In this document: positions 3,481 to 41,039 of the stretch, piece by piece | Layout: the number at the start of each line of letters is the position of its first letter | How positions within the stretch are numbered: the stretch's first letter is position 1 | Source: Lunularia cruciata | Lineage: Eukaryota > Streptophyta > Marchantiopsida > Lunulariales > Lunulariaceae | Assembly (NCBI GenBank): GCA_948567375.1 | Contig: OX419760.1 | Span: 22,382,001-22,446,000, forward strand | DNA length: 64,000 nt | Reading direction: 5' to 3' | Position numbers and translations under genes: made by a program | Notes under the pieces: model-generated | Database searches by the model: none | Told to the model about the DNA's origin: nothing | Seen by the model: only the letters and a program-made list of their open reading frames with translations

Positions 3481-4283
3481 ATCCGCTTACCTCACCTGAG
3501 TGAATAGTCTATTTAGTCCGACTTTCAATTTTGGTTCCATTTGTGCCTAGATTGAAGGCTATGATAATTGAGCAGAAAGTTATGAGTATTTCACATTAAG
3601 AGAATGATTACTTCACATTGAGAGCGGTGTGTTGGAGAATTTTCATTTCTAATCTCTTGGTATTCACTTGAGTTGCATGATAATTTAGTTCTAAAATGAG
3701 ATGGAAATTGAAAATTATAGAAGTTTATATTTTCAGGGTTTGGAGAGATGGTATTTCCTCATGTGAGTTGGGATGTGAGGGGAAGTGGTTTTGTAAGCAT
3801 GTGGAGATATCGAGAGGAGCATAATGTAATACAATCATTATTCTTGTGCTAGCCATGGCTATACTTCCCATGTGGGTGTGTTATTGGCGCCTTACCTTGC
3901 CAAGGGTAAAGACCCATGTGTGAAGGATGCACAAGGATTATGATTGGATCACTTGGGAAGCTCATGTGAGGCAAGTGATCACATAGACAGCAATGACACT
4001 CAAGATTACATATGTTTCTTCTATCCTTTCCTTGACCGTTCTAAGGATACCTATCGAGTCATGACAGTGGTTAGCATCTCAAGCGTGTTGTATTTTGGGG
4101 TTATTTGAGACTGATTTTCCATGTCCACATCTATTCCATATGCTACCCCGTACACTCCATGATGAGTTTAGAAAAGCTTTTTGTCTACCACTTGATTGTT
4201 TGGCATGTGATCCCTTGGATGAGTTAGCATGGTTCTTATTCCTCTTACTCCTTCGATGGTTCCTTCATTATGCTAAAGGGGGA
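3481..4283. other. AT-rich entry into the mobile-element region
   Basis: Composition changes near 3480 to AT-rich DNA with few CG dinucleotides. I recognise no coding domain. The last bases (4275-4283) are a purine run, AAAGGGGGA, directly against the start of the B-family LTR. This is where a polypurine tract would sit if a second B element once lay to the left. It could be chance. Confidence 0.3.
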
Positions 4284-4728
4284 TGTCATACCATTTGTAG
4301 CATTGTACCTAGATTGCTCGGACTCTAGAGTAGTGGTGTTGTTAGTCGGAAGTATTTTGGCAGTTACTCATAGACTACTTATGACGGTCAGATTTCATGT
4401 TTGGTGTATTGACTACATGGTGGGGCCTACTGTCACTTGCACCATTTGCACCGTCGGGTGTGCTATCAGCAAGACCATTAGGGTTAGAGACCTAGGTCAA
4501 GATCAAGGGGTATGCTTTTGAAGTGCAACTCCAGAGAGCTCACTTCTCTAATCTTGAGCGTTTGTGTTCCTGGCTATGGTGGACAAAGGCCAACGAGCAG
4601 CACCTGAAGTCTCTTAGGTAGAGTGGGTGTGGCTTGATTGTAATTAGTGCCCAATTGTTGGCAGATTATTGAGTGATAGGTCAAGTAGATGATTAAGTGT
4701 GATTTGAGTTGTGAACAAATTGATTACA
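4284..4728 (+). repeat. 5' LTR of B1 (core form, about 445 bp)
   Basis: Starts TGTCATACCA and ends GATTACA. It matches the 3' core at 26794-27224 over its whole length, and further copies at 31887-32337 (plus) and 33392-33840 (minus). The shared internal block starting CCTAGATTGCTCGGAC is the easiest to see. This copy lacks the about 115-bp block X that precedes the core in the 3' copies. The following leader starts TTAGAGAAGTG; I could not identify a primer-binding site. Confidence 0.75.
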
Positions 4729-6050
4729 TTAGAGAAGTGAAGTCAAAGGGAAATTGGGTGCAAGTGGTATCTCCAAGACTTATCAATCGTTGGTAGCTCA
4801 ATCGTTGTTCAAATTTGTATTGAGATGGATCGTGTGTAGATGCTCTTTTGAGTTGATGCAAATTTGGTAGTGAAGCAGACACTGTGTGGAACCGTTGGCC
4901 AAATTTCCCTCAAAAGAGAATGAATTTCAAATAATGGTGTTCGTTTTGAGCTTAGGAGGTGAAAGCAAGATCAATTTAGTGCAAATTGAGCTTGAAGTGC
5001 AACATTGAAGGTAGAGTTGTGAACCCACTCCCATGAATTTGTGATTTGGAGAATCTCATCCTTCTAATTTGACCTTAGTGGAGATTTAGTGGAGGATTTG
5101 GTAATCAGCCAACTCTAGGGATTTATGTTAGATTTTACATCAAATTTTGGTTTGAGTTGGAGGAGGTTTGCCAGATTTGGAGAGAGTTCAAAGTGGCAAG
5201 AAGAAAAGCTTCTTCTGGGTGTTTAGAGGCTTTGAGGCATATGGCTATGGGCTATGAGAGGCTACAAAGGCCTAGAAGGACCAACAAGCTAGCTTGTTGG
5301 CGTGAGGTTAGTTAGTTTATAGTTTTTGGTCATTTTTTTAGACTACAAAGGCTAGAAGGACCAGCAAGCCAATTTGTTGGCATGAGGCCAGCTAGTTTAG
5401 AGTAGTTTTTGGTCATTGTTTGGCAAAATCTATCCATCTTGCTAGATTTTGCGCAATAGGGTTTGAATCCTAGATCTCTAGACTGATGCACTAACCAACT
5501 GGTCCACCTTCTTTTGTTGTCCTAGTGATTGTTCCACTAATATCTATACACCTTTAGCTTTGGCTAGGAGAGACAATTTGATGTTATTCTTGGTGATCCT
5601 AGTAGCTTAGGAAGTAGACAACTCCTATTATGTTGAATGCCAAATGGTGGTAGAGTCAGTCCAATGTTGAGTAAAGAGATGGAGTGTTTTCATTTAGATT
5701 TTTTATGATTGGACCTCCATTCTTGGCTTCCTATTTGTGCACCATGTTTGTGTGAGGTGCCTTGACTTTAGAGCATTGGTGTTTTGGTGTGTTCTCAATA
5801 GTGAGACTAGAGTGATGAATAGTTAGACTACCTAAGTTTCTCTTTGGTGAGACAAGAAGTGTTGATCTACATACCATGAGAGTGCGTGCGTGTTGTAATG
5901 TTAGGTTATAGGTTGCCCTTTATCCTAGTGTAGTTTTTGTTGAACTACATTAGTGGGTGATGTTTGGTTGGTAGTGTTAGCACTTGATGGTGATTCTTGG
6001 TGGGGTATTAACGGTGGTTGCAGTTTACAATTTCTAGTTACTTTGTCACA
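4729..6050 (+). other. B1 untranslated leader
   Basis: Long non-coding leader between LTR and gag, also present in B3 at 32338-32555 and 41605-42997. Points of note: a tandem duplication of about 80 bp (units starting 5262 and 5343), a perfect 20-bp palindrome at 5281-5300 inside the first unit, and a tRNA-like sequence on the minus strand near 5455-5512. B3 has only one copy of the 80-bp unit but carries a different 349-bp duplication further on. Confidence 0.6.
5455..5512 (-). other. tRNA-like sequence in the B leader
   Basis: The minus strand reads like the D-arm to T-arm part of a tRNA: a box A-like CAGTTGGTTAGTGC and a box B-like GGATTCAAACCC at tRNA spacing. The same block is at 42050-42112 in B3, where box B reads GGTTCAAACCC. 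I see no acceptor stem, so this is not a tRNA gene. It could be a remnant of a tRNA-derived SINE carried in the leader. Confidence 0.35.
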
Positions 6051-7440
6051 ATGGAGTTCTTTGGGGATTCTAGAGGAGATAGCATTGCAGTATGAAATGG
6101 GTTTACTCGGAGTGGTGTTAGATATCATCTTGCATCTCAAGTCCCAATGAGAGAGGAGATTTACTCTAAGTTGGAATTTTTCCCAAGAGTTGATCTAGTT
6201 GTGAGTGCACTTGGTGTGTCCGCACCATTGTTGTGGGACATGGACAAGATTTGTGGGCTCTCCAAAGGCCCCAAGCATTACTCTAGTACAATGGGTACCA
6301 TTGAGTTGGATGACTTCATCCAAGAGTTTGATAGTTGGTGTGATCTATAGCAGATGTGGAACTCGGCTTTGTTCACACCCTTCGTGGCATGGAAGGGGTT
6401 GTTTCAACACATAGAAGGTCCACCAATGGACGACTATCATGCGTTCAAGAGAGCTCACTTGGAGGAGATTGATCTATGGAGACAGTAATAGTCTCCAAAC
6501 TATGTCTCCATCACTTTAGGCTCAATTTTTAGGGGTAGATTGGCAACACCCATGAGTTCTAGCTCTAGTAGTATCGGTGAATTTATTGGAGATGGTGCTA
6601 CTACAAGTGGAGGTACCACTACAAGAGGTGGTGTAGTATCCCATGGTGGAGTTCTTCCAATGTTTGAGGCAAACCTACCAAGGAGTGCAGACTAACAAGT
6701 TGAGGAGCTTGCAAGAGTTCCAATGGACTGTTGGAGAGAGCATATTTGAAGCATACACTCGCATAAGATGGCTGATCAGTTTTACTCAAGGAGTTACTGA
6801 GGTCTAAGTAGTCTTGTTTTGGTATGGGATACTAGATAAGAAGTTGCAATGTAAAGACTGTGATGCTACATTGTTACAAGCTACTTTTTCTACTTTGGTA
6901 AGTGGTCTTTATTTGAGCAAATTGGGCTCAAAATGGTGGAGGAGAGAGTGATGAAATTTGGATTTGGTAAGGAGAACTCATACACAATTGTTACTTCTTC
7001 CAGAGTGTAGTAGAGTACACCATGCCATGTTGGTTTTTTAGGACAAGGTGGACAGCTCAGATCTTATGGAGTGAGTGGATGGCCTAGTGTAGCTAGACCT
7101 TTACCTTCATTTTTGGGTTAGTAGTAACCAATGAGTGGTGGTGTTGCTTGTTGGACTTGTGGTGGACCTCACCACATGAGAGAGTGCACTTAGGGCAATG
7201 GACCTAATACCTCTAGTGCATCTCAGCCAACATAAAGATAATGTAACCATTGCCACAAATTTGGTCACTCTAGTGATTGATGCTTTGACCTACACTCAAA
7301 GTTACAATGTTGCAAGAGTGCTATGGCAAGTAATAAAGGAGCTCCAATTCATGGAGGACAAGGTGGTAGAGGTGGTGGTAGAGGATCCACACTTGGTAGG
7401 ACTGCAATACCTGCTCTTACTTTTGATATAGCCATGGCTA
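6051..7440 (+). pseudogene. B1 gag with two zinc knuckles (broken)
   Basis: Structural and nucleic-acid-binding protein of the element. It probably starts at the ATG near 6051 (MEFFGDSRGD), matched by a similar start at 42998 in B3. The middle part (6690-6960) contains a retrotransposon gag-like stretch, LRSLQEFQ..VGES..EAYTR, with a close counterpart in B2 at 41182-41400. Two CCHC-type knuckles follow. At 7149-7189 the spacing is CX2CX3HX4C, one residue short of the canonical form. At 7242-7283 it is canonical CX2CX4HX4C with a TGA in place of the residue before the last Cys (TGG to TGA). B2 shares the second knuckle and its stop. Several TAG codons break the frame. Confidence 0.65.
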
Positions 7441-7829
7441 CCTAGATTGAGCAATTGGAGCAAAGATTGGCTAGCATAGTCATAGCTCAGAGGAGATCAG
7501 ATTCAGGTGTTGAGACTTCCACCTCATATGTTGGTGATAGAGATGTCTTGGACTTCATGTGTGGAGCAGCATAGGTGGATGCATCTATCATAATGACTAG
7601 GAGTGCAGTACATGCTCCAAAGCCTAGAGGAGCATTAGTGGAGTTGGACCCACAAAGAGGAGAGGCTGATAGACATATCAAACTTTCCCAGTCAGGTTTA
7701 TGGTAGGCAACAACAGCTAAATTGGAGGAGTAGCCAGCCTTGAGCAAGTGCGGTTTACACCTAGAGTTATCTTATTGGATAACCAAAGGGGGATTTTTTG
7801 TTTTTTGGGACCTTTATGGAAGGTCTATA

Positions 7830-8200: not shown

Positions 8201-8439
8201 TAGAGTGGTAGTCTTGGCTCAGTATAGTTTGAGACCATGGCGGCATTAGTTTGAGCTTTCAGTGGTTTTGCTACTTGGCCTAGTGACTTATTGGAAGAGA
8301 ATGCCCATGCAAAGGATACTCCATTACTAGAGGAAATCACTCAAATTTGATACATGAGTGGGATCATTCCACCCACCTTGGATTTTCCATGGTGGAGTTC
8401 AGAGGAGACATTGCAACAACATGCGCATCAGTTGGTGCA

Positions 8440-9660
8440 ACATGCTTGGAGTGGAGCCTTTGTACCACCAGAGGCCAAGGTGAGGATGAGCCTTTGGAGT
8501 TGATTACCTTGACTCCTTTGGACATCACACTCATTGCTTGGTAATATCCAATAGATGAAGTATGTATATTGGAGTTATTTGGTGAGATTAGCATTGGACT
8601 AGTTGCAATACTACAAGTGGATATACAAGTATAGAGGTACTTGTATATAGAGAGAGATGAGACTACTAGACAAGTCTCTCTATATCATGTGGCACACTTG
8701 GCCTATTGGTGTCTTGAGTTATTATCATTGTCATTAATCAAGGGTTACTAAAATACCCTACCAACAAACATTCCCTTGTTGGTGGCACACGATCTAGAGA
8801 GACATGGTCCTATTCATTTGGTGATTTCCAGATGGCCATGTTAGAGATATACATGTGTTGGCCAAGGTCTAGGTCTTTAGGATCTCCATTCTGGTGTGTT
8901 TGGGAGATGTTACATATACTACAACATCTCCAAGTTCATTAGTCTATTTCACCAGCTTACATTTTAGAGAACATTCCTTTGATGGGTGATTCTTGCACCT
9001 AAGGTGGTGGCAAGTACACATTAGGTCCATTCTTGGATGGGACTTGCCATGTTGTTGGATGCAACTTGAGTGGGATCACAAGCTCATCATCTTTGTCTTT
9101 AGTGGACAAACCTCTTACTCAAAGAGGTTCTACAACGTGCTTATGATGGGATTCAACAACTAGACCACCTCACTATTAATGACATCCTAGATATTGAGCT
9201 TCAAATCATATGACGGTAGTGGTTGATAGGTCACCTATGGTAGTGTTGAACCTAGTTGGATAGCCTTGAGCTACTTTTCCCACACTTATGAGTTTCTTAG
9301 GCTCTCCCATAAATTTCAAGAGGGAGGTCTTCGACTTGATTGAGACTCATAATTATAGTAGTTGGTACACCTCAATGTCGATGAGAGAGAGCAAAAATTG
9401 GGCTTTGCACTGGTATTATCGTTATTCCAATAGTATCAGAGGCATCTAGGAGTAAGATGTTAGGTCAGGCTATGGACCTTAATTTTTTGACCCGGATTGT
9501 AAGCCTTGGCTTGGCAGAGCAACATAGGATGCGCTTGATAGCCATCACCACTTGGACACTTGTGAGCTCTATGCCTATTGATACAATTCAGGCACATGTT
9601 GGGAGCAATGGACCGAGTGGACAAGCTATTCTTGGGACATAACCATTGGCTACTAGAGAG
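8440..9660 (+). pseudogene. B1 C5 cytosine DNA methyltransferase domain (broken)
   Basis: A domain of the family that transfers a methyl group from S-adenosylmethionine to carbon 5 of cytosine. Motifs occur in canonical order. Motif I, at 8566-8601, reads LELFGEISIG where FGGxGxG is usual. An acidic motif II-like strand, YIERDETTRQV, follows at about 8632-8670. Motif IV, at 8833-8844, has the catalytic Pro-Cys of the PCQ motif, with Gln as TAG, followed by a Gly-rich GQGLGL. Motif VI, at 8967-8990, is ENIPLMGD. The motif VIII region, at 9073-9114, is SQAH.....WTN, with the expected arginines read as His and Cys. Then come TINDILD, FPTLMSFLGSP, a DEREQKLGF segment near 9385 and motif X, LGQAMDLN, near 9460. 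Two or more frameshifts and several stops make it inactive. B2 retains motifs I, VI, VIII and X in the same order. Confidence 0.78.
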
Positions 9661-10119
9661 AGTGGTCTACTTGGAGTCCATCCATGTGAGCATGGTCTAC
9701 TTTAGCATGGTCTAAACACCCTTGGTCTACTTGGGATGTAGCTAGAGGACATATGGAGCTTGCAGCCAGAGTGGTGGGAGATTTTCACATGGAGATTGGG
9801 AGCTCTAGTGGTTCAAGGCATGATACAACTACTCCCAAGGACCTAATGTAGCAACTAGTCAGTACGTCTTCCACTCCTATATTAGTTATAGAGGATTACT
9901 TGGGAGCCAAATCTATGACCCAAGCTTACAAGAGAGGAAAGATAGAGAGTTTGGTGGTTCTTGAGGAGCTACACAAGTTGTTTTGCCTTCAATATGAAGG
10001 TTTTGGGTGCTCTGAAAGGACCTAGTATTTGGATTGAGTTAACTAGCAATACACTAATTTTCTTATGTCCTTATCAATGTAGTGATATGGAGAGAGCATT
10101 GATTTAGAGCCAAAGTAGA
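9661..10119 (+). other. B1 linker between methyltransferase and reverse transcriptase
   Basis: Decayed coding sequence of the polyprotein, with a counterpart in B2 at 36970-37560. It includes short imperfect repeats of a unit meaning roughly LLGVHP/HGLL (tggtctacttggagt, tggtctactt, ggtctacttgggatg) at 9662-9740. I recognise no domain. Confidence 0.4.
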
Positions 10120-11270
10120 GACCTTTTTGAGGTTGGTTTGGTGGAGAGTTCACATGGAGAGTATGCATCAACTAAGGTGATGCCAGCCAAGAAAGATATG
10201 CATGGTAACTAAATAGATAGGTAGATGTGTGGAGATTATCATCCTATCAACCAACAGACTAGGGTTGATCGGTATACCATCCCTACACTAGAGGAGATCT
10301 TTGATGTGATTGGGTATGCAAAGGTCTTTAGTACTTTGGATCTTTGAGTAGGATATCATCACTTGCCAATTAAGGAGGAGTGTAAGTCCAAGACAAAATT
10401 TTAGGCTATTGATCCTCATGGCAAAGATATGTCCTATCAATGGAGGTTCTTAACATTTGGGTTCAAGAACACTTATATCAAGTTCTAGAGGGTCATAAAC
10501 AGGGTCCTAGTTGGATTATATTTTGCTCAATGTTATATTGATGACAATTTTTGTCCATAACACTACTATTATGGAGCATGAGAGACATTTGTTGGAAGTG
10601 TTTGAGAGGTTGAGATCTCATGGACTCAAATTATATCCTAGGAAGTATAGATTCTTCCACAAGAAGGTTGAGTATTTGGATCACACAATCTACCCTAGAG
10701 TACTTGGTGTTCAACAGACCAAGGTAGAGGTTATTGCATGGATTCCTTGGCCTATAGATGTGAGTAGAGTGCAAGCATTCCTTGGGTTGGTAAACTTCTA
10801 TCATTGCTATGTTAGAGGATTTAGTGCCATTGTCACGGCCTTGACAAAGCTGACCAAGTTAACATAGGAGTGGTGATCGGGAGATGAGCAGGAGAGATCT
10901 TTTATAGAGCTCAAGGAAAGGTTGACATCTGCACCTATTTTGAGAAGACCAATCAGGGGACAACCATTTCAGGTTCACACGGATTGGAGTATGTTGGGGC
11001 TTGGAGCAATGCTCATCTAGCATGATGATGAGGGGAAGGAGTTTGTGGTGGCCTATGCTAGTTTCTCCAACAATTCAGCAGAAGCAAGTATAGTTCCTAT
11101 GAGAGAGAGTGCTTGGTAATAATATGTGCAATAGCATATTTACAATGTTACCTATTTGGTAACCCCTTTACTCTCATCATTGATCATCAGCAACTAAAGT
11201 TGTTGATGGAATCCAACAAGCTTTTAGGGAAGCTTGCATGATGGGCTCTAATTTTACAAGAGGATGATTT
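10120..11270 (+). pseudogene. B1 reverse transcriptase and RNase H (broken)
   Basis: Copies element RNA to DNA and removes the RNA template. Reverse transcriptase motifs in order: VMPAKKDMHGN near 10180, MCGDYHPINQQT near 10225, the YTIPTLEEIFD region, STLDL near 10330, the FLTFGFKNT segment near 10450 and the active site YIDD near 10535. The thumb region ends in FLGLVNFYHCYVRGF at 10777-10826. RNase H starts at about 10970 with VHTDWSMLGLGAML, keeping the first catalytic Asp, and continues to DHQQLK near 11190. TAG and TGA stops are frequent. B2 carries the same region at 36050-36960 with active site YIDDI. Confidence 0.75.
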
Positions 11271-12637
11271 CATGATTATTCATAGACCTAGATAGACCAT
11301 GATGCAGATGGGTTGAGTAGAAACCCATATCCCAACCAACAAGATCAGAATGGAGCACGTTGGTATGGTGAGACACATGAGGAGATAGTGCCAAGTTGGC
11401 ATGCATCTACCTTTCTTTGCATATTTTTTGAGGCTTTGGTGGTATTTCTTTCATTGCATAAAGGAGGATTTATTGAGGTCATAGATCTAGAGAGTGGAGA
11501 TAGTAGGACAATTCAACAAGAAATTCATGATGATCTCTTAGTGATGGACTATCTTTGCATTGGTGTTGTGGGTAGCACAATTGGAGCCAAGGAGAGAGAA
11601 TGTGTTCTTCATTGAGCTAGATGGTTTAGATTGGAGGAGCAGAAACCTTCTTTGTGTGTGGGAGAATGGTAGAGTGCGAGTAGTACCACTTCCATCTTAG
11701 AAACCATAGTTGGTACTTCATGCTCATGAGGAGCTAGGGCATTTTGGAGTAAAAGTGTACATATAGTTTACTCTAGAGTCATTATTAGTGGTGCGGTATG
11801 CAGACCAATGTAGAGCGATTTGTTGCCAGATGTGTGGTTTGTGACCAAGTTAGAATATCATTCAGTGTTCCTACACCACAATTACACCCATTACCTATCA
11901 TGGGGTTGGGTTACCTTTGGATTTTGGACTTTGTTGGACCTTTACCGTTGACTATGAGACATCATCAATATGTTTTGGTGGAGCACTTCTCCAAGTGGAT
12001 TGAGTTCGTGGTACTTCCTGATACGTCTTGTGAAGAGATGGCTTCCTCATTCTTGGATTGAGTTCTTAGTCATTTTGGTGCACCAATTGAGGTTTTGATT
12101 GATCATGGTACAAGTTCTTGGAGGAGTTTTAGGTCTTGTGTGACAAGGCTTTGATTGATTATTGTACAACCTCTTGAGATCACTTTGAGGTAGATGGCTT
12201 AGCATAGAGAGTGGTTTAGACAATGAAGAGAGGATTGCAAAAGTATAATTTGTAGAGAGGCCACTTGGGAGATTGGGATCTCCAATTACTTTGGTTGGCC
12301 ATGGGCTATCAATTCAGCTAGCAAGCCTCCTTAGCATCCTTCTCTCCTTACTTTTTACTCCATGGATGTGATCTATTTTTGCTTGTAGATACTACTATAG
12401 TTGTGGACTTGGATGATCTAGATGTGTGGATGAGCGTATGTTCTCAACATGCAGAGATCTTTTAGAGAGTGATGCCGATGGCCTTTGAGAACTCAATGAT
12501 TGCTCAACATAGGGATACCTTATGTTATACTACCATTCAAGGACGAGGTTATAGATCCTCAATCCGTCAATTCTATCTAGGTGACTATGTATATCTACAA
12601 CAATCAGCACCAATGATACTTGATGTTTCTATAGGCA
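11271..12637 (+). pseudogene. B1 integrase (broken, split by element A)
   Basis: Would insert the DNA copy into the genome. The HHCC zinc-binding part is visible around 11720-11850 (HAHEELGHFG, then CVVC). The core starts at 11930 with LDFVGPLP, followed by YVLVEHFSKWIE and, near 12095, LIDHGT (the second acidic residue). The third catalytic Glu is not clear. The C-terminal part (12340-12637), with GDYVYLQQSAP, stops abruptly where the LTR of element A starts. Its continuation is at 26213. Confidence 0.7.
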
Positions 12638-13323
12638 TGTAATACCCATTCATGCATGTATGTGTTATTGTGATACTTAGTTTGGTATTATAAGTACTTC
12701 AAAGATATTATTTATATAAAGATAAAGGGTGGTTTTATATTAGTCATGATAAGCTAAAGATAGTCATAGCTAAGATAGAGGGACCTTACTTTAGAGGAAG
12801 TGGAAAAGATGAGGATCACTATTTTGGGTTCTAGTGTGTTGACTTGGTATTATTCTTAGGTATTTGGCTTTGAAGAAAGAATTGAGAACTCTTGGGCTCA
12901 CAAGCCTTTTGTGTTGGATTCTTCTAAAGTCCAAGGATAGCCAATGTGAAGGAATCCTTGACTTAGTAGTAGGGTCAATATAAGATCATTAGGAGAATAT
13001 TCCCATGAGTATAGATATTCCTTTAGCTTTTTGACTTTATTTGACTTTTACCCTAATAACTTGAGTTACTCCAATAATTTATAACTTTAGTACATAATTA
13101 TTTCACAAGTATATAAACTAAGGGTGAGGAGGTACTCATCATCTTTTTATTTGCAACTATCTCTCTCTCATATTGAGTTCTTTAGTGAGTAATGTTTTGA
13201 GTCTTGGAGTGTTAGCCTTGGAAGAGTACGATGGAGTTGGGGTTCTTTGCCTTTTTAGCCTATGGTGTATTACCATAATAGCCATCAGAGGTTCATCTTG
13301 AGTGAGAGACAAGCCGGCTCACA
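12638..13323 (+). repeat. 5' LTR of element A
   Basis: TG...CA LTR of 686 bp, starting TGTAATACCC and ending GGCTCACA. It matches the copy at 25523-26212, and lone copies at 53398-54086 (plus) and 40347-41038 (minus). A TATA box (TATATAA, 13110-13116) precedes a pyrimidine-rich start region. Confidence 0.85.
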
Positions 13324-14238
13324 TTTTTTATTCCATGGCCAGGACCTCTCTAGAAGGCAAGATAATGTTCTACGTACAATCTTTATTAGACAGAAGGAGG
13401 TTATGAGAGCTCACTTGGAGATAACATTAGGGGAGGAAAGATCAAAATTTATGTTAAAGAACCAAGACCCATTTGTATACCATGTAGTTCATTATGATAT
13501 CTTTGAGGTGATATTGTACATCTTGTACAAATGAGAGGATTTGGAGAGATTATGTGAGGTGTATTGTAGATTTTGGGGATTATAGTGATTTTGGAGATTA
13601 TAGTGATTTTGGAGATTATAGTGATTTTGGACAGAATCTCAAATTTGAGATCTAGACTTGAAATTTTTACACATGACAGCTTGAGTTATTTTGCAATTAG
13701 TACACTTGAAATTATTATGAAAGCTATTATAAGCATTGAGCTAGAATTTTTGAAAGTTGATATGGTAAATTACTCCAAACTACATGTTCTCTAGAAATTT
13801 GTACAGAGTCTGAAATTTCTTCAATTTTCAATAGATTGTTTTGAAACTTTCCAATAAATTTTTGTGCATTTTATCCTACCTTTTGGTCCAAGAATTAGAG
13901 AAAGATCATTCTTGTCCAGGGAGTTATGAGTTTTTAAAGTGAGGGGGTGGTTTTCAGACCAAATTTGAAATATGTGTGTTGAATAGAAAGATACCTAGGG
14001 CAAATGGCTTGATGAAAAGATCTGGAATTTTTCAAGGGAAGATGCCTTTAGGTTTTGATCAATTTTACAAAATCTTAGAGTACTTTGACGTACCAACTGA
14101 GAGAATTTAGTGATATTGTGAGGAGGGGTCAATTTTGTAGAGTTGAGATCTCATGCACGAGGAGTGTGAGAGCAACAAAAAGCATATTTGAGTGTTTAGA
14201 CTCATCTTGGGAATATAGAAGGTCACCAAGAGTGAAAA
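13324..14238 (+). other. Element A leader with a 19-bp minisatellite
   Basis: Non-coding, AT-rich leader. I found no convincing primer-binding site just after the LTR. At 13573-13632 the unit GATTATAGTGATTTTGGAG is repeated about three times in tandem. Confidence 0.5.
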
Positions 14239-16440
14239 TTGAAGCTATGTAAGGTTCTTGAATTAAAGTTGAATTTAAAGAAAAGAGAGTTTAGAATAGA
14301 ATTTGAAAAGAGTGTAAAAAAGATCCAAAAGAATACACTACATGGAAGAAAGAGTGAGTCTAAGTGTTTTTTATGTGGAGAGAAGTGGCATAAAGCAAGT
14401 TCATATCCATTGACCTTTGAGAGCAAGAGATTAATGGAAAGGAGAGGTTTACTTGACTTGGGTTTGCATGTTGAACATTCTTTAAGAAGATTAGGAGGGA
14501 GAAGATCTAAGACCAAGGAGTTGTGTGAGGTTTGTGGCGTGGAAGGACTTCCAAAAGGACATGAGTGTAGTGGAGTAAAAGCACTTTTGGAGACTTTGGT
14601 GAAGGATCTAGGAGGGATTATTAGTATAGCTACATAAATATTACCACTTTCATTGGCTAGTTCTCAAAATTAGTGATGGAGATAATCTTTCAACTTATGG
14701 ATAAACTATTCATGATAGTTTGATTAATATGCATTCTAGGATTTGATGTTGCTATAAAAATCTTGAAGAAACTTGAACCTTTTGTGTTCTCTAGGATGAA
14801 TTACTCTCAAATGGTGTTAGTCATGTACATACTCTATTAGTTATATAGTGAGAGAGAGAAAAGAAAAGAAGAAAAGAAAAGATTAAAAGAAAAGAAAAGA
14901 TAGTGAGGGGTTAAGATAAGGAAACCTCCAATTTTCTTTGGCAAGGATGGAGAAGATGTGGAGCCTTTTATGAGAGACTTCAAGAGAGCTTGCATAGGAA
15001 AAAATGAAAGGAAAAAGAGTGAGGGGCCTCATTATTACCAGTTTTCTTTGAAGATGCAGCCCTTACATTGTATGAGTGGGAATACCAAAAGAGAGATGAG
15101 AGATGTGCAAGAAGAGTCTTGGAAGAGTTTTACTTTAGCACTCATTTAGAACTTTCTTCTAGATGAGAGTTATGAGAGATTGATGAATGAGATTATCTTC
15201 ATCAAACAAGGAGATGGAGAGAAAGTGAGAGTCTATGTAGAAAGAGTGGAGAAGTTAGAGTCTAGATTTTTCATAGTGTTGAGGAATGGTGGGGATGATG
15301 TGACGACTACTATGATTGGCATAGGAGCCATGCTCACCAAGAATTCTATGGGATGGCTGAGACCACAAATACGAAGCAAGGTAAGATATGAGAAACCTTC
15401 CAAACTTAAGGCTATCAAGATTGCAATTTGTATGGAGTAGAGTTTGGAAGGGGATGAGAGTGATTTGGTGGTAACGGAGATTGTGCATCCTCCTCAAGGC
15501 TACAATTATGGTGGAAATTCTAATACTTTGTGGCAAGGGTTGCACCACAAGTAATATTTGCTTCAATTCTTGCACCTCTACCAAAAGATCCACTTCAAAC
15601 CATCACAAAACAACTGGCAAATCTCAAGATCAACATAATGCAATTATGGGAGAAAAGAGAGGTGGATCAGAATGTGAGGAGAGGTCCTAAGAGCTCTTGA
15701 AACTATCCATATAGAGGAGGCCACCAACCAACAAAAATTTTAATGAAAGAAATTGTTTTGGTTGTGGAAGAAGAGGTCATATCCAAAGGAACTGCCCAAA
15801 TTCCACTTACCATAGAAGAAGGAGCTATGAAGGAGCCAATAGAGGGAAAGAGGGAGGAGGTGAAACTCAAGTGGATCCTAATCCAAAAAAATGTAAGGAG
15901 ATAGTATCCATAGATGTGGTTGAGAGCAATTATGAGAATGAGGAGTGCTCAAACTCCAAAGGTCTTAATTTGGATGTTTTAGCACAAGAGAAGAAGAGAG
16001 CTCATTTTGCAAAGGATGTATGCTCTTCTCAAGGATTTCCTCATAGAAAGGATACTCCTATGCCTACTAGGAGCACTTGCACTAGTAGCTCAAACACCAT
16101 CAGCAACAAAGACTCCAAGGAAGAAGTTGAGGATGGAGGATTTATTGATCTCAAAGCAACAATGGAACTACAATGTGTTGGAGGATTTTGGTAGTCACAA
16201 GGATAACATTGTAGTGGGCCAACTGATTGCTTTGAATCCTACCTTGGAGAAGGAGCTTAGATGTGGTTTAAATTCTATAAGGAGCAAGAAGAAGAAGAAA
16301 GCAAAAGTTCCAGTATCAATGGGTTTGGTGGATGCCAAACCAACACCATGGGAGGCTTGTGAATATGCCTCCAAGGTTGAGGTGAGAGTGAATGGTCACA
16401 ATATCAAGGATGCACTTGTTGATGGAAGATTATAGTGCAT
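14239..16440 (+). pseudogene. Element A gag region with zinc knuckle (broken)
   Basis: Decayed gag. A hydrophilic N-terminal stretch with a Cys-rich segment (CFLCGEKWH near 14370, later CEVCG) is followed by a purine-rich repeat tract at 14851-14901. A capsid-like part begins at about 14948 (FLRDGEDVEPF-type start, broken). A canonical CX2CX4HX4C zinc knuckle, CFGCGRRGHIQRNC, lies at 15754-15795. The following Lys-rich and acidic segment to 16440 probably leads into the protease, whose active site I cannot see. Confidence 0.55.
14851..14901 (+). repeat. Purine-rich simple repeat
   Basis: GA repeats followed by AAAAG-type pentamer repeats on the plus strand, inside element A. Confidence 0.7.
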
Positions 16441-17159
16441 GCAATGTTAGAGAAGTTGATGAAAAAGTTGGGTATGATACCCTCAAGACCTTCAAAATTT
16501 ATAGTGAGCATGGCAAATAAGAAACAAGTTCAACAAGTAGTGGTGATGGATAAGGTGACAGTTTCAATTATGTGAGTTCAAAATCTCATGACTTTCCAAG
16601 TCTTGAAGGATTCAAGCTATGATTTTCTTCTTGGGAGGCCATGGTTGAGAGCTACATACATAATTGATTGATGGCACAAAGATACTTGAGGATTGGATCA
16701 TCAAACCATAGAGTTATAGTTCATGTTACTAACACCACCAACACTTCACAATCAAATACACCATCTTCTCATTATTGGGAATCAAATTCAAAAGAAGGAG
16801 CTTCAAGAGTGGACACAAGCATGGAAGAAGAGACTTCCATGGAGGAAGATGAATCTAAATCTGATTCAGGTGTGTATCTCTTGTGTGCTATGGATTTTGC
16901 ACCTAAGCTAGAGGTTTTAAAGGACCTAAATAGATCACCATTGACACTTGAGGAGATAGAGAGGAGGTTATCTACCCTCAAGTATGGTCCAAATGTTACC
17001 AAGGAGTAGAAGGTGAGATTTGAGGAGCTTTTTTGCAAGTTCATCCATGCTTTTGCTTTCAAGTACAAGGATCTAAAGGAAGTCACCTTGGAAGAGCACA
17101 AGATTAAGGTGGAGTCACATGCAAGACCAATCTACCAAAAAGTAACGTTGCATTAGTCC

Positions 17160-17607
17160 ACCAATATCTTTGGTTGTGAAAGAGAAGATTGATAAACTCA
17201 AGGAGGCCAAATGTATCTCTGAGGTGGAGAATTTAAAATGGGTGTCTCCAATTGTGATTGTGAAGAAAAAGAATGGTAAGATTTGAGAATGTGTGGATTA
17301 CAAGAAGCTAAATGTTGTTACTATAACGGACTATTACCCTTTGCCATTCATTGATGAGATCTTGGAGAAGAATGTAGGTCATGAGAGGTATAGTTTTGGA
17401 GATGGTTATAGTGAGTATAACCAAATCAAGATTGCACTAGAGCATCAACAAATCACCACATTCACCACAGCTTGGGAGATTTATGTTTTCATGGTCATGC
17501 CTTTTGGGCTTTGCAATGCTCTAGCCTCATTCTAACATTTCATAAACAAGGTGTTTGAACCTTTCATTGGGAAATTTGTGAGAGACTTCATCGATGACTT
17601 TTGTTTC
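17160..17607 (+). pseudogene. Element A reverse transcriptase, 5' part (split by element C)
   Basis: Motifs in order: WVSPIVIVKKKNGK near 17240, CVDYKKLNVVT near 17290, YPLPFIDEIL near 17340, MPFGLCNALASF near 17500, and the active site FIDDF at about 17590. The sequence stops there and resumes at 24218 with FYGSKEEH, because element C inserted exactly after the active site. One TGA and one TAA break it. Confidence 0.75.
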
Positions 17608-18363
17608 TATAATACCAAGGGTTAGCCATATGATCTAGATGTTAAATTTGGTTTGGTAACATCTAGAAAGATGTTATACATGATGGTCAAAATAGATCAA
17701 ATAGAAGTATCACCAAAAGAGTACTTCTACTAATAGGGCAAAAACCAAAATAGACTTGAGAACCTTAGAATCAATAGCTAGACATATGATTTGAAGGTGA
17801 GAATTGGTTTGGTAACATCTGGAAAGATGTACACATGATGAACTAAATAGATCAGAAAGAGGTATCACCAAAAGTGGACTTCTACTAATAGAGTAGGAAC
17901 CAAAATATGCCTAAAATCTTTGAAGGCAATTTTAGAGGCCTAAACGGATGAATTAGGCCTTGAAAATGTGTAGATTCCCCCCCCCCCCAATACAGCAGAA
18001 AGGTTGGCCTTCCCTCCCCCTTGCTTTGTCTTGTCGAGAGCTTTCCAATGGTACCTTACGTGATTTTGAGATTCCTACAAGAAGATTCTCTAAAAGATTC
18101 CCTCCGGTAAAAGCTTGTTTGACCAACCAGAGAGGACCTAGACCAGATAGGACCTAGACCAGATAGGTCACACATCCAAGTAAGTAATCCAAGGGTGGAG
18201 CTTGCTGACATGTCACCTATCTGTGCCTCTAATCCTATGGTGGAGCTTCCTTGGAGGAGATCCTCTTTGTCTATATAATAAAGAGAAGGTGATCCCTTGG
18301 GGCATCAAATGTTTGAGTGTGCAATCTGTGTTTTCTCTCTTCTCTTGTCCTCGGAGTATTACA
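17608..18363 (+). repeat. 5' LTR of element C
   Basis: 756 bp, starting TATAATACC (TG mutated to TA) and ending TATTACA. It pairs with 23482-24217. The two differ by a few percent, mostly transitions. This copy also has a longer C run near 17980 and a 16-bp tandem duplication near 18133-18165. Both copies carry an internal duplication (segments starting near 17651 and 17805) that the related LTR of element D lacks. A TATA box is at 18272-18280. Confidence 0.9.
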
Positions 18364-18364
18364 A

Positions 18365-18375
18365 TGGTATCAGAG
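18365..18375 (+). promoter_or_regulatory. Primer-binding site of element C
   Basis: TGGTATCAGAG one base after the 5' LTR. This is the complement of the 3' end of initiator tRNA-Met, the usual primer for plant LTR elements. Confidence 0.85.
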
Positions 18376-18947
18376 TGAGTGTTCTAGTCCAAGAGAGTGG
18401 ATCACCCCTCTTGGAATAACACGAACTACTAAAACTGAGTAATTTGAGGTGGAAAACATTGAGTAATCGCTAGACTTAGGAAGGACTTGAGAGAGCGGAT
18501 GGGATGGATGCGCCGGGAAGACAATTTCCCGCACCTAGCTTCCATTTTCAAACCCATTCCACATCAAGGTTATGTACATCCAGCGTGAGCAGATGAGGGT
18601 ATCACTAGTTTATCACTTTGGTGCGGAATTCATGGATAGAGTGATGAACTCACCAAACCCGATGATTCTACCTATGGTGATATATGATAGAGAGTGGGAT
18701 TTGATGATCTACATTCTATTATAATAATATGGATATGAATGTCCCAAATCCTCTCCCTTTCAACACTCAAGTAGAAATCCGTTATGTAGTGAGGCCGAAA
18801 GTGATGTTTAGAGATTTTGTGGTTAGGAATTTTGCTGAGGAGTATTATCAATGAGTGATAGCTTCTGAGGTCCCAATGGTAGTTCCGATAGTTCGTGCAC
18901 CTTCCACAATGATTATATTGACTCTGTATTGAAGTAGATGTTAGCAA

Positions 18948-20090
18948 TTGGGTGTTGCAAGAACCATGGATCCGCAGTTGCAAGAGTTGGTGCAAGGAAT
19001 GCAAGGGATGCTGAATGAATTTCGAGAGATTAAGATGACCATGGAGACATTACAAAGTCAAGTGCAGATCCTCAGGAACGATCAAGCCATGCAAGGAGAA
19101 GAGCCGTCTCAAAATCCAATACTTGCAACTGAGGTACTTGGAGAGGCACCCGTGCCTACGAACCCTATCAACGATGAAGCCACATTGCTACTCCGGATGA
19201 AGAAGACCTGCAACATTGAGGCTTACAAGGGGCAGCGTACAATGGGAGTAGTGGAAAATTGGATCTCGAGAATGAATTGATATTTCCGATTGTTCTCAAT
19301 AGAGATCACAGAGCATGTTGCAGGCATGTTTTCATGTGGATACTTGACCGATAAAGCTCTCACATGGTATGATGCTTGGGAACGATCCATGCTGGCCAAG
19401 AGAAGGGAGGTCACATGGACAGCAATGCAAGAAGGACTGCTGAAGAATTTCCAATCGGTGGATTCTGTGCAAATGGCTCGAACCCGACTATGGGGATTGA
19501 GACAGAAGAATAACGTACAAGAGTATGTGGAGGCATTTCTGGATCTGCAAGTCACAATTACCAACATGAGTCCAACAGAGGCTCTCAACAATTTCAAACG
19601 AGGGTTGAAAGAGTGGATTCGCCAAGAAGTCATGGTGCAAAACCCTCGCACGGTATTTGAAGCCATTGCTTGTGCGCAGAGAATAGCAATAGCATTAGGT
19701 GGAGGTGAAGGAGTAGTTCCACCTCAACATTATCGGGCAGAAATGTTACACATGGGTGGACCAGTACCGTGGAATTGGGCAACCTTCGATTCCAGGATTG
19801 AGGAGCACAACCGCTTCAAGGGGAGCGGGGACGGGTAGAAGAACAAAGAGATGGAGTCCCACGAGGAGAAGGGACTCAAGGAGACAACGCCATTGTTACA
19901 GTTGTGGCCGTATTGGGCACATATCTACCAATTGTCGCACTTGTTTCTCTAGAGGCCCTCGGCCTTCGTATAGGCGATCTTTGAACAACATGGAGAGGCA
20001 CATTGAAGAAGAGGAGGTGGAAATCACTTTGGAAAACAAAGATCGCCAGTAAATGTACCTTGCGGCCTTACTGGCTCAATAAGGAAGTAG
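18948..20090 (+). pseudogene. Element C gag (nearly open, broken)
   Basis: Capsid and nucleocapsid protein. An N-terminal coiled-coil-like segment (18960-19110) is followed by the capsid region with LTWYDAW near 19360, then a canonical zinc knuckle, CYSCGRIGHISTNC, at 19894-19935. The capsid lies in one frame and the knuckle in another, shifted near 19830. The protease and pol downstream are back in the capsid frame. In element D the knuckle is in frame with its gag, so the shift in C is damage and not programmed. A stop lies at 19278. Confidence 0.8.
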
Positions 20091-20147
20091 AGAAGCAAGG
20101 AAAGGAAGAAGAATAATGCGCAAAGATCCCAAAAGGTAACCTCACAA

Positions 20148-20492
20148 TTGATTGTCGTGAATGGAATCCTAGAAGGTAATCAAGTGAGAGTATTAATAGA
20201 TCCGGGAGCAATAGAGAATTTCTTGGCTCGCTCTATTGCAATAAGATTGGGAATGGATCTAGAGAGAGATGGAAGTGAAGAAGTAGAGTTACCAAATAGG
20301 CAAACAGAGAGGATTCAATCATTACCTAGACGGGTAACCCTCTCTGTAGGAGAATATCAAGAAGCAATTGAGTGGCGAGTGATACAATTAGCCTGTTATG
20401 ATGCAATTTTAGGCATACCATGGATGGAGCAGTACAACCCAATGGTGGATTGGAGGAAGAAAGTAGTACCAATGGTCAATCATTGGGGTTAA
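20148..20492 (+). pseudogene. Element C protease domain
   Basis: Retropepsin-like domain. The active site reads VLIDPGAIENFL: the catalytic Asp is present, but the Ser/Thr of D-S/T-G-A is Pro, which should disable it. The second hydrophobic strand with the Gly (AILGIPWMEQYNP) is present at 20404-20442. Confidence 0.75.
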
Positions 20493-20639
20493 AGAAAATA
20501 ACACAAGCAGAAACTGCCTCTATATGTCGTAGGGATGACAACTGTCTATAAGACCAATAGATGTTTTATGGGTCTAATAAGAGAAGTCTAGAGTGCACAA
20601 CTCGCTGGAAAAATTCCTGAGAAATTGAAGGATGTGGTG

Positions 20640-23467
20640 GATGAGTTTCAAGATGTCTTTCCCAATGATCTACCTTCAGGATTACCACCTAAAAGGTGAG
20701 TAGATCACAAAATAGAGACACTCCCGGGGAAGACACCTCCTTGTAAGGCCCCATATTGCCTATCACCTCATGAGTTGGAGGAGTGTAAGACTCAAATTGA
20801 GGAGATGCTATAGAAAGGGTTCATCCAACCTAGCATATCACCATATGGGGCCCCTGTCTTGTTTGTGAAGAAGAAGGATGGTACAATGTGCATGTGCATT
20901 GACTATCAGGGTCTCAACCAGCAAACAATGAAGAACAAATACCCCTTACCTTGCATGGATGACATCTTTGATCAACTCCATGGAGCGAGATACTTCACCA
21001 AACTGGACTTGCGGAGCGGTTACAATCAAATCCGAATTGCAGAGGAGGATGTGTACAAAACTGCCTTTTGAACCAAGTATGGCCACTTTGAGTATCTTGT
21101 GATGTCTTTTGGCCTCACCAATGCGCCTGCCACTTTCATGAGCCTAATGAATGACATATTTTGTCCATACTTAGATAAGTTTGTTATCATCTTCTTGGAT
21201 GATATCTTAGTATATAGTAGCACAATGACAGAACATAAACAACATCTACGAGAGGTCCTCTAGATTCTAAGATAGAATCAGTTGTATGCCAAAATCTCAA
21301 AGTGTGAGTTTGGCAAGTCTGAAGTAGACTACTTAGGGTATAGAGTAAGTGCAGAGGGCATTCAAGTATTGACAAATAAAATAGAGGTCATTCAAAAATG
21401 GAGTGCTCCAGAAGATCAGACTCAACTTAAGAGCTTCTTGGGGTTGACGGGATTCTATCATAGATTTGTCAAGGACTTCTCCAAGGTTGCACAGCCTTTA
21501 ACGGCACTACTTGGCAAGGGGAAGAAGTGGACATGGGGAACCGCACAAGAGTTGGCCTTTCAAGAATTGAAGGCCGCCTTGCTACATGCACCAATCTTGA
21601 AGTGGTATGATCCAAAATGTCCAATCAAGTTGGCTACATATGCATCAAGCGTAGCAATAGGAGCAGTCCTACAACAAGAGTGGCATGACGGATGGCATCC
21701 AATTTCATATTTCTCTTGAAAGTTGTTACCGGTAGAGCGCAACTATTACACCACAGAACAAGAAGAGTTGGCCATCATTCTAGCAACCAAGCATTAGAAG
21801 CATTACCTAGGCAAGAAGGCATTTGTAGTAGAGACAGACCACAAACCTCTAGTCTACCTTGAGATGCAGAAGGATCTATCTCGTTGCCAAATTCGGTGGG
21901 CAGAGTGGCGACAACACTTCAACATGACAATCACCTACATGGAAGGTAAGAAGCAACTTGCAGATGCATTCACCCGCATGCCAATGGCCAATAACTTGGT
22001 GGCAGAGGTTAAGATTAACCCTAAATTCTGGCAAGAGATTCTAGCTGCTACAAAAACTAATCCACAGATTGTTGAAGCGCAATCGTCCAAAGGTGTCACC
22101 TGCACCCAAGGACTCACCTTTCGGGATGGCAGATTATGGATCCCAAATGTCCCAGAATTACACACCACCATTCTAGTAAAATGTCATGATTTGGCCATTG
22201 CAGCTCATGTCGGAGTAGACAAGACCTTGAATGCAGTCAAGCAACATTATTATTGGCCCAAGATGAGCAACAACGTGATGGACTATGTGCGTAGCTGCCT
22301 ACTTTGTCAACAGAACAAAGCTTCTAATCAAGCTTCTACAGGGCTCCTTCAACGTCTCTCCACTCCTACCCAACGTTGGGAACAAGTGAGTATGGATCTC
22401 GTCTGTGAATTACCCAAGACCACCTCAGGGTTTGACTCCATTGTGGTCTTTGTGGACCGGCTCAGCAAAATGATTCATGTACGCCCTACCACCAAGGAGG
22501 TGACCGCTCCACAACTAGCTCAACTATACTTAGATGCAGTCTTTGCTCACCATGGCTTGTCTAGAGTACTCATCACCGATAGAGGCACCCAATTCACCAG
22601 TTTGTTTTGGCGAACACTCTTTGGTTTCTTCAAAACCAAGTTGGCCATGTCTACAGCTTACCACCCACAAACAGATGGCCAAATAGAGCAGGCTAATCGC
22701 ACAATTGAAGACATGTTACGTGGCTTCACCTTAGAAGAGCAAGAGAGGTGGGACACCCTACTACCATTGGTGGAATTCGCTTACGACAATTCAGTGAATG
22801 CCTCCACCTAGGTCACTCCGTTCTTCCTCATGTATGGTGAGCATCCCTTCACACCTTCTAGCTTGATGAAGATCCGTCTAGTGACTACCAAGGTTGATGC
22901 AGTCAACACATTTGTTTCTAGAATCCAACAAGGTGTGGAGAGCGCCAAGCATAGGTTACAGATTGCACAAAATTGACAAAAAAAGTATGTTGATGCACAC
23001 CGTAGGCACATGGAGTTCAATGTTGGAGATCAAGTGTGGCTATCAACAACCAACCCCACATTAGTTGGATCTCGTAAGCTCAGACCTTGTTTTATTGGGC
23101 CTTTCTCGATTCTTTGTCGCATTGGCGCTGTGGCCTATCACCTTGAGCTACCACCACACATGAAGATCCATCCAATGTTCCATGTCTCCCTATTACGCAG
23201 ATATGCTCCTTGATCAGGCCAAGGTCCTTCCACACAAGACATTCGACCTTGTCCGACACTCATTGATGGCACAGAGGAATATGAAGTGGAGCAGATTCTC
23301 CAAAAGCGCATGCGTGGTACTTGCCATCCGTGGGTGGAATATCTAGAACAATGGAAAGGTTACCCCCTCTATGAAGCAACCTGGGAACCCGCTGCTAATT
23401 TGGCACATGCACCGGTGTTGGTGCAAGCATTTGAGCAAGAATTGCACAACGAGGACGTTGCGTCTTA
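20640..23467 (+). pseudogene. Element C reverse transcriptase, RNase H, integrase and chromodomain
   Basis: A pol reading frame in one phase throughout, broken by about ten stops. Reverse transcriptase: [19 protein letters not shown] near 20860, [21 protein letters not shown] near 21110 and the active site FLDDILVYS near 21195. In RNase H the first catalytic Asp is replaced by Tyr in TYASSVAIG near 21637. Integrase has the zinc-binding CHDLAIAAH and CLLCQ, then the DDE triad: SMDLVCELP near 22392, TDRGTQFT near 22576 and QTDGQIEQAN near 22675. The chromodomain at 23268-23420 has YEVEQIL, WKGYP and TWEP, keeping the aromatic positions used to bind methylated histone tails. The stop at 23466 precedes the polypurine tract. 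Confidence 0.88.
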
Positions 23468-23481
23468 AAAGGAGGGAGGTC
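23467..23481 (+). promoter_or_regulatory. Polypurine tract of element C
   Basis: AAAAGGAGGGAGGTC immediately before the 3' LTR, where second-strand synthesis would be primed. Confidence 0.75.
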
Positions 23482-24217
23482 TATAATACCAAGGGTTAGC
23501 CATATGATCTAGATGTTAAATTTGGTTTGGTAACATCTAGAATGATGTTATACATGATGGTCAAAATAGATCAGATAGAAGTATCACCAAAAGAGTACTT
23601 CTACTAATAGGGCAGAAACCGAAATAGACTTGAGAACCTTGGAACCAATAGCTAGACATATGATTTAAAGGTGAGAATTGGTTTGGTAACATCTAGAAAG
23701 ATGTTACACATGATGGACTAAACAGATCAGAAAGAGGTATCACCAAGAGGGGACTTCTATTAATAGAGTAGGAACCAAAATATGCCTGAAATCTTTGAAG
23801 GCAATTTCGGAGGCCTAACGGATGAATTAGGCCTTGAAAATGTGCAGATTCCCCCCAATAGAGGAAAGATTGGCCTTCCCTCCCCCCTGCTTTTTCTCGT
23901 CAAGAGCTTTCCAATGGTACCTTACTCACGTGATTTTGAGATTCCTACAAGAAGATTCCCTAAAAGATTCCCTCTGGTCAAAGCTTGTTTGACCAACCAG
24001 ATAGGACCTAGACCAGACAGGTCACCCATCCAATTAAGTAATCCAAGGGTGGAGCTTGCTGACATGTCACCTATCTTTGTCCCTAATTGTATGGTGGAGC
24101 TTCCTTGGAGGAGATCCTCTTTGTCTATATAATAAAGAGAAGGTGATCCCTTGGGGCATCGAATGTTTGAGTGTGCAATCTGTGTTTTCTCTCTTCTCTT
24201 GTCCTCGGAGTATTACA
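23482..24217 (+). repeat. 3' LTR of element C
   Basis: 736 bp, starting TATAATACC and ending TATTACA, then the target duplication ATTTC. It has a shorter C run than the 5' LTR and lacks the 16-bp duplication. Confidence 0.9.
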
Positions 24218-27224: not shown

Positions 27225-27343
27225 TTATTATGGCACTTGAAAGTCCATGTATGATTTATGTGTGAATTTCATTTCTATAGTGTGTAATGTTGATAGCAAT
27301 GTATATTGTGTTGCAATGTATATATGCATAATAGGGATGTATA
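27225..27343 (+). repeat. Second block X abutting the B1 3' LTR
   Basis: About 115 bp matching 26683-26793 and 33263-33391, joined to the LTR core with no spacer. It ends where the non-LTR relic begins. Confidence 0.6.
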
Positions 27344-41038: not shown

Positions 41039-41039
41039 G

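What the first reader, a model, noticed from the sequence alone, without database searches (positions are those of the whole stretch)
8440..9660. A Ty3-type retrotransposon that carries a C5 cytosine DNA methyltransferase
Between protease and reverse transcriptase, B1 has sequence that shows C5 methyltransferase motifs I, IV (Pro-Cys), VI (ENIP), VIII-like (SQAH...WTN) and X (LGQAMDLN), in canonical order and at plausible spacing. Seen directly in the translation. Known of the family: these motifs bind S-adenosylmethionine and form the catalytic pocket. From memory, methyltransferases captured by retrotransposons have been reported in some algae and protists; I do not recall a description from a plant of this kind. 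Inference: the element could have methylated its own or host DNA, perhaps to hide from or maintain silencing.
Basis: partly seen in the sequence, partly recalled or inferred. Interest (0 to 1): 0.92.

Follow-up and report, generated by a model that had tools for sequence, protein, structure and literature searches.

The report
Methyltransferase-carrying retrotransposon family in liverwort
The window holds two decayed copies of an abundant jumping element that carries its own DNA-methylating enzyme, here in what appears to be a liverwort, a kind of element reported before from algae and dinoflagellates but said in print to be missing from land plants.

Summary
Window 8378-9702 (+) and 38694-37453 (-) are decayed copies of a DNMT3-type C5-methyltransferase inside a Ty3-type element. 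Read alone, neither hits PF00145, but younger copies in the same genome do, and solved-structure searches rank DNMT3A/3B first. Anatomy: gag - protease - methyltransferase - TAG-CARYYA stop - RT - RNase H - DDE integrase - PHD finger. Repeats are split (A1 ... B1-A2-B2), with TGTC...GACA ends and 4-bp target duplications; window copy 1 has this layout, interrupted by a 13.6 kb nested insertion. The genome has 1,261 exact 5' junctions. Relatives occur in Marchantia, Sphagnum and metagenomes; the sampled element methyltransferases form one clade apart from the host's DNMT3, so capture looks ancient. Catalytic residues are conserved and inherited changes look constrained. Closest known: KnitGypsy-Dnmt3 of Klebsormidium. 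What looks new: the land-plant host, PHD finger, leaky-stop motif, and split repeats shown together with DDE-type target duplications. Most likely role, inferred: methylating its own cDNA or insertion.

The parts
4280..4283 (.). target site duplication GGGA, left copy
   Evidence: GGGA directly before TGTC of A1, repeated at 27334-27337
4284..4715 (+). A1, 5' terminal repeat of copy 1
   Evidence: 79% identical to repeat A of copy c12; 80% identical to A2 of the same element
4727..5965 (+). untranslated leader of copy 1
   Evidence: blastn to the c12 leader, 71% over 1301 columns
6039..7694 (+). gag, decayed, with the CCHC knuckle region
   Evidence: tblastn to L010 ORF1 residues 32-593, about 70% identity
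7736..8151 (+). protease region, decayed
   Evidence: tblastn to L010 ORF1 residues 726-864
8378..9702 (+). DNMT3-type C5-methyltransferase region, decayed, motifs I-X in canonical order
   Evidence: tblastn E 1e-129; less decayed relatives hit PF00145 and DNMT3A
9849..9857 (+). TAG CAACTA, stop with CARYYA context between methyltransferase and RT
   Evidence: TAG CARYYA at this place in 19 of 20 copies examined
9898..12636 (+). RT, RNase H and integrase, decayed
   Evidence: tblastn to L012 ORF2 residues 16-935
12637..26212 (+). nested LTR element inserted in copy 1 (terminal repeats 12637-13323 and 25522-26212), itself holding another (17606-24219)
   Evidence: direct repeats 88% and 91.5% identical
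26235..26516 (+). PHD-finger end of the integrase ORF of copy 1, displaced by the nested insertion
   Evidence: 82% identity to L012 ORF2 residues 943-1037
26683..26787 (+). B1 repeat of copy 1
   Evidence: 90% identity to repeat B of c12
26794..27226 (+). A2 repeat of copy 1
   Evidence: 75% identity to repeat A of c12
27227..27333 (+). B2 repeat of copy 1, right end of the element
   Evidence: 80% identity to repeat B of c12; end read
27334..27337 (.). target site duplication GGGA, right copy
33411..41613 (-). copy 2, more decayed: gag part to A2; A2 33838-33411, B1 33949-33845, PHD within 34630-34124
37453..38694 (-). methyltransferase of copy 2
   Evidence: 48% identity, E 2e-92
31887..33388 (+). 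third, internally deleted remnant: A1, leader start, part of A2, B2
41590..43356 (+). fourth remnant: leader and start of gag

Best explanation
An old lineage of Ty3-type retrotransposons that captured a DNMT3-type cytosine-5 methyltransferase long before the present copies arose. Shown: gag, protease and methyltransferase lie in one frame; a conserved in-frame UAG-CARYYA separates them from RT, RNase H, integrase and a C-terminal PHD finger; repeats are split A1 ... B1-A2-B2 and insertions carry 4-bp target duplications. Inferred: the stop is leaky, so the methyltransferase is made at Gag dosage and packed with Gag; it methylates cytosines, probably CG, of the element's own cDNA or of the chromatin where it integrates; and the PHD finger steers the integrase to chromatin with unmethylated H3K4. 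New copies would then arrive already marked or in silent chromatin, which lowers the cost to the host and lets the family persist.
For: Domains. Nearest solved relatives: DNMT3A E 4.5e-10 by sequence; by fold, the 50 rows listed are all entries of DNMT3A, 3B or 3C, several in complex with DNMT3L; Ty3 RT and H3-type PHD fingers. Catalytic residues over 64 element methyltransferases: Cys of motif IV 61 of 61 (3 rows have a gap there), Glu of motif VI 64 of 64, Arg of motif VIII 63 of 63. Selection: in the methyltransferase, changes shared by two or more copies have omega 0.28, changes private to one copy 0.69 (Fisher p 0.02); RT 0.21 and 0.46. Stop motif 19 of 20. Split repeats and target duplications. 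Sampled element methyltransferases on one side of a branch at 100/99, apart from host DNMT3.
Against: No activity is shown. The Klebsormidium relative's domain gave no methylation in yeast, a result its authors call inconclusive (PMC5890265, section 10). The decay of window copies is CG- and CHG-biased, which host enzymes alone could cause; nested elements, in which the family's ORF1 finds no match, show a like bias on few sites. CpG depletion of young copies (o/e 0.46-0.51) is no stronger than in the rest of the window (0.48). Selection counts come from copies picked for PF00145 matches and open frames, so they lean towards intact methyltransferases; the RT contrast alone is not significant (p 0.13). 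Readthrough at UAG-CARYYA and H3K4me0 reading are carried over from memory of other systems.
Confidence: 0.6

Rival explanations
1. The methyltransferase is real and under selection but acts on host chromatin in trans, for instance silencing competing elements or foreign DNA, rather than on the element's own DNA.
For: The PHD finger could bring the polyprotein to chromatin; a defence role for retrotransposon methylases is suggested in PMC6338049 (passages seen).
Against: A trans benefit is hard to select in a family of more than a thousand copies; nothing here shows an effect on other elements.
Confidence: 0.15
2. The domain keeps its fold and nucleic-acid binding as a Gag-linked structural or chaperone part, and methylation is not what is selected.
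For: It is placed on the Gag side of the stop; proline before the catalytic cysteine is kept in only 38 of 62.
Against: Cysteine 61 of 61 and motif VI Glu 64 of 64 are kept; a purely structural role would not need them.
Confidence: 0.12
3. A recent, liverwort-specific capture of the host's own DNMT3 gene.
For: The host genome has canonical-order DNMT3 genes.
Against: The sampled element methyltransferases from liverwort, moss and metagenomes form one group that excludes host DNMT3 and DNMT3A (100/99).
Confidence: 0.04
4. Chance motif resemblance in decayed Ty3 sequence.
For: Window copies alone give no Pfam hit.
Against: Open younger copies, PF00145 above cut-off, DNMT3A sequence and fold matches.
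Confidence: 0.01

Closest known systems
KnitGypsy-Dnmt3 of Klebsormidium nitens (de Mendoza et al. 2018, PMC5890265; abstract, sections 9-11 and passages seen)
   Same: Ty3/Gypsy domain set, intronless non-rearranged Dnmt3-type methyltransferase, repeats arranged as in DIRS elements, evidence of purifying selection.
   Different: The host here appears to be a land plant, with over a thousand copies. Here the methyltransferase lies on the Gag-protease side of an in-frame stop, while the paper places it in the Pol polyprotein. PHD does not occur in the paper's main text; its figures and supplements were not seen.
SymbioDIRS-Dnmt3 (same paper, passages)
   Same: Dnmt3 domain in a retrotransposon with repeats A and B arranged as in DIRS elements.
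   Different: Tyrosine recombinase there; DDE integrase, TG...CA ends and 4-bp target duplications here.
Chromoviruses (Ty3/Gypsy with integrase chromodomain; recalled)
   Same: Chromatin-reader domain at the end of the integrase.
Host DNMT3 and DRM genes
   Same: Same enzyme fold family; DNMT3 has the same motif order.
   Different: Host DNMT3 lies on the other side of the tree's main branch; DRM has rearranged motif order (L002).

Membership tests
C5 cytosine methyltransferase (PF00145) | PF00145 above curated cut-off and motifs I, IV, VI, VIII, X in order | tested here: met
   L006, L008, L010 ORFs 30-36 bits against cut-off 22; motifs. Window copies alone: no hit.
DNMT3 subfamily | Nearest to DNMT3A/3B by sequence and fold | tested here: met
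   in the tree the element group lies beside, not inside, the sampled DNMT3
DRM | Rearranged motif order (X before I) | tested here: not met
   Order is I-IV-VI-VIII-X
Ty3/Gypsy (Metaviridae) | RT-RNase H-integrase(rve) order, Ty3 nearest, TG...CA ends, short target duplication | tested here: met
Ty3/Gypsy (Metaviridae) | Two equal full-length LTRs flanking the body | tested here: not met
   5' end has A only, 3' end B-A-B; 0 of 39 listed B|A junctions lay 300-600 bp before any of 100 listed A|leader junctions
DIRS/Ngaro | Split direct repeats A ... B-A-B | tested here: met
DIRS/Ngaro | Tyrosine recombinase, no target duplication (the latter recalled) | tested here: not met
   Pfam finds rve and H2C2, no PF00589; 4-bp duplications in 6 of 7 copies and in window copy 1
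KnitGypsy-Dnmt3 kind | Sequence kinship of RT and Dnmt3 with the K. nitens element | not tested
   No row named Klebsormidium appeared, and no other source was available
Chromovirus | Integrase C-terminal chromodomain | tested here: not met
   PHD finger instead
Active DNA methyltransferase | Methyl transfer to DNA | not testable with these tools
   needs an enzyme assay

The most novel reading that the evidence does not exclude
It would home to chromatin lacking H3K4 methylation and mark its own new copies, and it would have done so since before mosses and liverworts split. It would also use a Ty3-type DDE integrase on a DNA end formed inside the repeat (at GACA-GC-TGTC, the B|A junction of a circular or two-repeat intermediate) rather than at the repeat ends.
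Probability: 0.3. Interest if true: 0.87.

Novelty: new variant of a known kind. Interest (0 to 1): 0.72.

Why it matters
Retrotransposons are main targets of cytosine methylation, so one that carries its own DNMT3-type enzyme in over a thousand copies of a plant genome turns the usual arms race round. [quoted passage not shown] the Marchantia and Sphagnum proteins and this genome show that bryophytes have them. Marchantia is a laboratory model, so whether such an enzyme marks its own copies becomes directly testable. The element also links a DDE integrase to split repeats, an arrangement that the 2018 paper notes in one figure legend for Klebsormidium.

Tried and rejected
Rejected: chance motifs; recent capture of the host gene; membership of DIRS (target duplications); conventional equal LTRs; a permuted A-B-A-leader class expected if a two-repeat circle were cut at either B|A site (0 cases among the listed junctions), which leaves the exact route to the A ... 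B-A-B form open. A tRNA primer site next to A1 was looked for by eye only (ATCAGAG, weak) and is not claimed. CpG depletion in young copies (o/e 0.46-0.51, CHG 1.12-1.18) was weighed as a sign of self-methylation and dropped, because the rest of the window has CpG o/e 0.48. A scan of viral contigs with P0022 found nothing. A first text pattern for the stop context found only the window copy; alignment was used instead. The AlphaFold model of a metagenome relative is weak overall (mean pLDDT 50.5; blocks of the methyltransferase core mostly 60-90), so only its methyltransferase part is used.

Limits: genome-wide junction counts are of exact matches only, and only the first 100 places were listed; copy counts from protein searches are lower bounds. 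One search scored only the 7,988 candidates sharing most words. The methyltransferase tree used 39 of 64 element rows and 20 of 121 other rows, host DNMT3 included, plus two rows typed in. The private/shared counts used 14 of 19 methyltransferase copies outside the window; the 5 with more than one stop were dropped. Host identity is inferred: nearest named proteins are from Marchantia, a 112.5 kb contig looks plastid, and size and Ty3 abundance fit Lunularia cruciata (580 Mb, PMC9985172 passages); not proven.

Full report
What was checked. The window is G000:C10:22382001-22446000 of a 566 Mb genome in 74 contigs. A protein from a less decayed copy in the same genome (L010) aligns through the region at 56-80% identity, and to the minus strand at 38694-37453 at 48%. 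Pfam sees nothing in either decayed piece but scores PF00145 above its cut-off in open copies. A PF00145 search of the genome scored 123 of 2,161 candidates, all above the cut-off, most of them at about positions 48-120 of the model; at least four others look like host genes. A search with the methyltransferase scored 106 of 14,468 first-look candidates, all at 96% identity or more over 390 aa or more; 12 of the 106 are listed with a frame of 1428 aa or more and no stop in the match.

The element. Seven copies with flanks were read. ORF1 holds gag with two CCHC knuckles (by eye), protease and methyltransferase. ORF2 follows in the same frame after one stop in all seven and holds RT, RNase H, H2C2-rve integrase and a PHD finger at the very end (on L012). 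The stop is TAG followed by CARYYA in 19 of 20 copies examined, including window copy 1; the exception is window copy 2. UAG-CARYYA is the tobamovirus-type readthrough context (recalled, not from a call). If it works here, the methyltransferase is made at Gag level and RT-integrase at a fraction of that.

The repeats. In these copies the 5' end has repeat A (about 450 bp) and the 3' end has B1-A2-B2 (B about 108 bp). c10 keeps only 77 bp of A1, and c15 lies among related copies. A1 and A2 are 97.3-99.1% identical in five copies and 88% in c15. Ends are TGTC...GACA. Perfect 4-bp target duplications stand at six of seven copies; c15 shows none (read by eye). Window copy 1 has the same layout with GGGA on both sides. 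B1 and A2 meet in GACA-GC-TGTC in most of the seven (GT for GC in c13 and c15). Exact genome-wide counts: A|leader 1261, A|B 1484, B|A 514. In the listed part of C1, 0 of 39 B|A junctions lay 300-600 bp upstream of any of the 100 listed A|leader junctions; of 28 A|leader-to-B|A pairs 7-12 kb apart, 23 were 8.8-8.96 kb apart, and 22 B|A junctions lay 443-451 bp before an A|B junction. 51 of 100 listed A|B junctions had no exact A|leader partner, as expected for solo A-B remnants or for partners that have mutated. A G-rich tract lies just before B1, so a conventional reverse transcript would end in B-A repeats. The integrated form is then what one gets by cutting a two-repeat molecule inside one repeat. 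The permuted alternative was not seen among the listed junctions, so this part of the mechanism is unexplained.

Kinship. The methyltransferase matches DNMT3A first among solved structures (E 4.5e-10), then DNMT3B, with HaeIII (6e-4) and DRM2 (0.01) far behind. A model of a 66%-identical metagenome relative (P0003) gives entries of DNMT3A, 3B or 3C in all 50 listed Foldseek rows. One search gave 41 relatives: 14 named Marchantia polymorpha (57-70% identity), one Sphagnum fallax (48%), 26 without an organism name. One search gave 23 rows, 22 of them new, none with an organism name. Two main domain orders occur: protease-MT-RT in bryophytes and P0063, and RNase H-MT-integrase in most RT-bearing metagenome polyproteins; P0038 and P0041 have MT before RT. 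PHD was found in 32 of these 63 proteins, many of which are partial. In the methyltransferase tree the 39 element rows form one side at 100/99, apart from DNMT3A, two host DNMT3 genes and 19 other proteins, and the RNase H-MT-integrase order is one group at 99/91. The RT tree also keeps that order together, at 100/99. Simplest reading: one old capture and one relocation. The RT tree leaves the branching among the MT-before-RT rows weak, and Klebsormidium is in neither tree, so the published view of an independent capture there is neither confirmed nor overturned. The Sphagnum gene model lacks the motif IV stretch.

Selection and decay. Among 14 of 19 methyltransferase copies (5 with more than one stop dropped), changes private to one copy are 26 synonymous and 56 non-synonymous (omega 0.69); changes shared by two or more are 23 and 20 (omega 0.28), Fisher p 0.02. 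Protease shows the same contrast (p 0.007); RT goes in the same direction but not significantly (p 0.13, half-counts rounded). Copies were chosen by PF00145 match and open frame, which biases towards intact methyltransferases. Pooled pairwise dN/dS is 0.37 for the methyltransferase, 0.30 for RT and 0.52 for integrase. The window copies have lost C to T (or G to A) at 43-49% of CG and 37-40% of CHG sites against 10-15% of CHH, taking copy c09 as reference. This is what long CG and CHG methylation leaves behind. Nested elements decay with a like bias, on few CG and CHG sites, so host enzymes suffice to explain it.

PHD finger. By whole-chain score the best solved match is CHD4 (two PHD stretches); of the five alignments shown, the best single stretch is KDM5B PHD1 (51.5 bits), with KMT2D, KMT2C and PHF12 also shown and DPF3 and PHF21A close in the table. 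Several PHD fingers of this kind bind H3 unmodified at K4 (recalled). Animal DNMT3 also carries an H3K4me0-reading ADD domain (recalled), so the pairing in one polyprotein is suggestive, not shown.

Known or new. KnitGypsy-Dnmt3 is the closest described kind. PMC12344493 (passages) repeats that retrotransposon DNMT3s are known from streptophytes and dinoflagellates. PMC6338049 (passages) says they are not present in land plants such as tracheophytes. Searches for bryophyte, liverwort or Marchantia cases, for follow-ups on Klebsormidium, for split repeats with Gypsy and for PHD with Gypsy integrase listed no title or abstract start that describes this family; apart from the papers named above I saw listings only, plus passages of PMC6453930 and PMC9985172. 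Only open-licence papers are held, so this is not proof of absence. The Marchantia proteins of the family carry names such as hypothetical protein or names taken from domains.

Noticed in passing
L035 (C7:31984500-31991700) and L036 (C1:51663500-51670400): Two host loci with canonical-order DNMT3-like genes split by introns, beside a DRM-like gene (L002) and a CMT/MET1-like exon (L003) (by eye).
   Followed up: partly
P0022 and P0037, C-terminal ends: Beyond the PHD finger these metagenome polyproteins have a further domain with DPW and SP motifs that looks, by eye, like an adenine-type methyltransferase; Pfam gives no hit there at E up to 0.1.
   Followed up: partly
P0063: One metagenome polyprotein has the bryophyte order protease-MT-RT-integrase without a stop, and branches first within the element group as the tree is drawn.
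   Followed up: partly
window 1799-2407 (-): An open frame with a signal-peptide-like start and a chitin-binding-like cysteine pattern, probably a host chitinase gene (by eye).
   Followed up: no
window 12637-26212: Nested LTR elements inside copy 1, with Ty3-type RT at 20.7-22 kb and 24.4-25 kb; their terminal repeats also show CG/CHG-biased decay on few sites.
   Followed up: partly
genome, A|B junctions: 51 of 100 listed A|B junctions have no exact 5' partner, so solo A-B remnants may be about as common as full elements.
   Followed up: no
G000:C74: A 112.5 kb contig with a RuBisCO large subunit gene and rps7-, ndhB- and rpoB-like frames (by eye), evidently the plastid genome.
   Followed up: no
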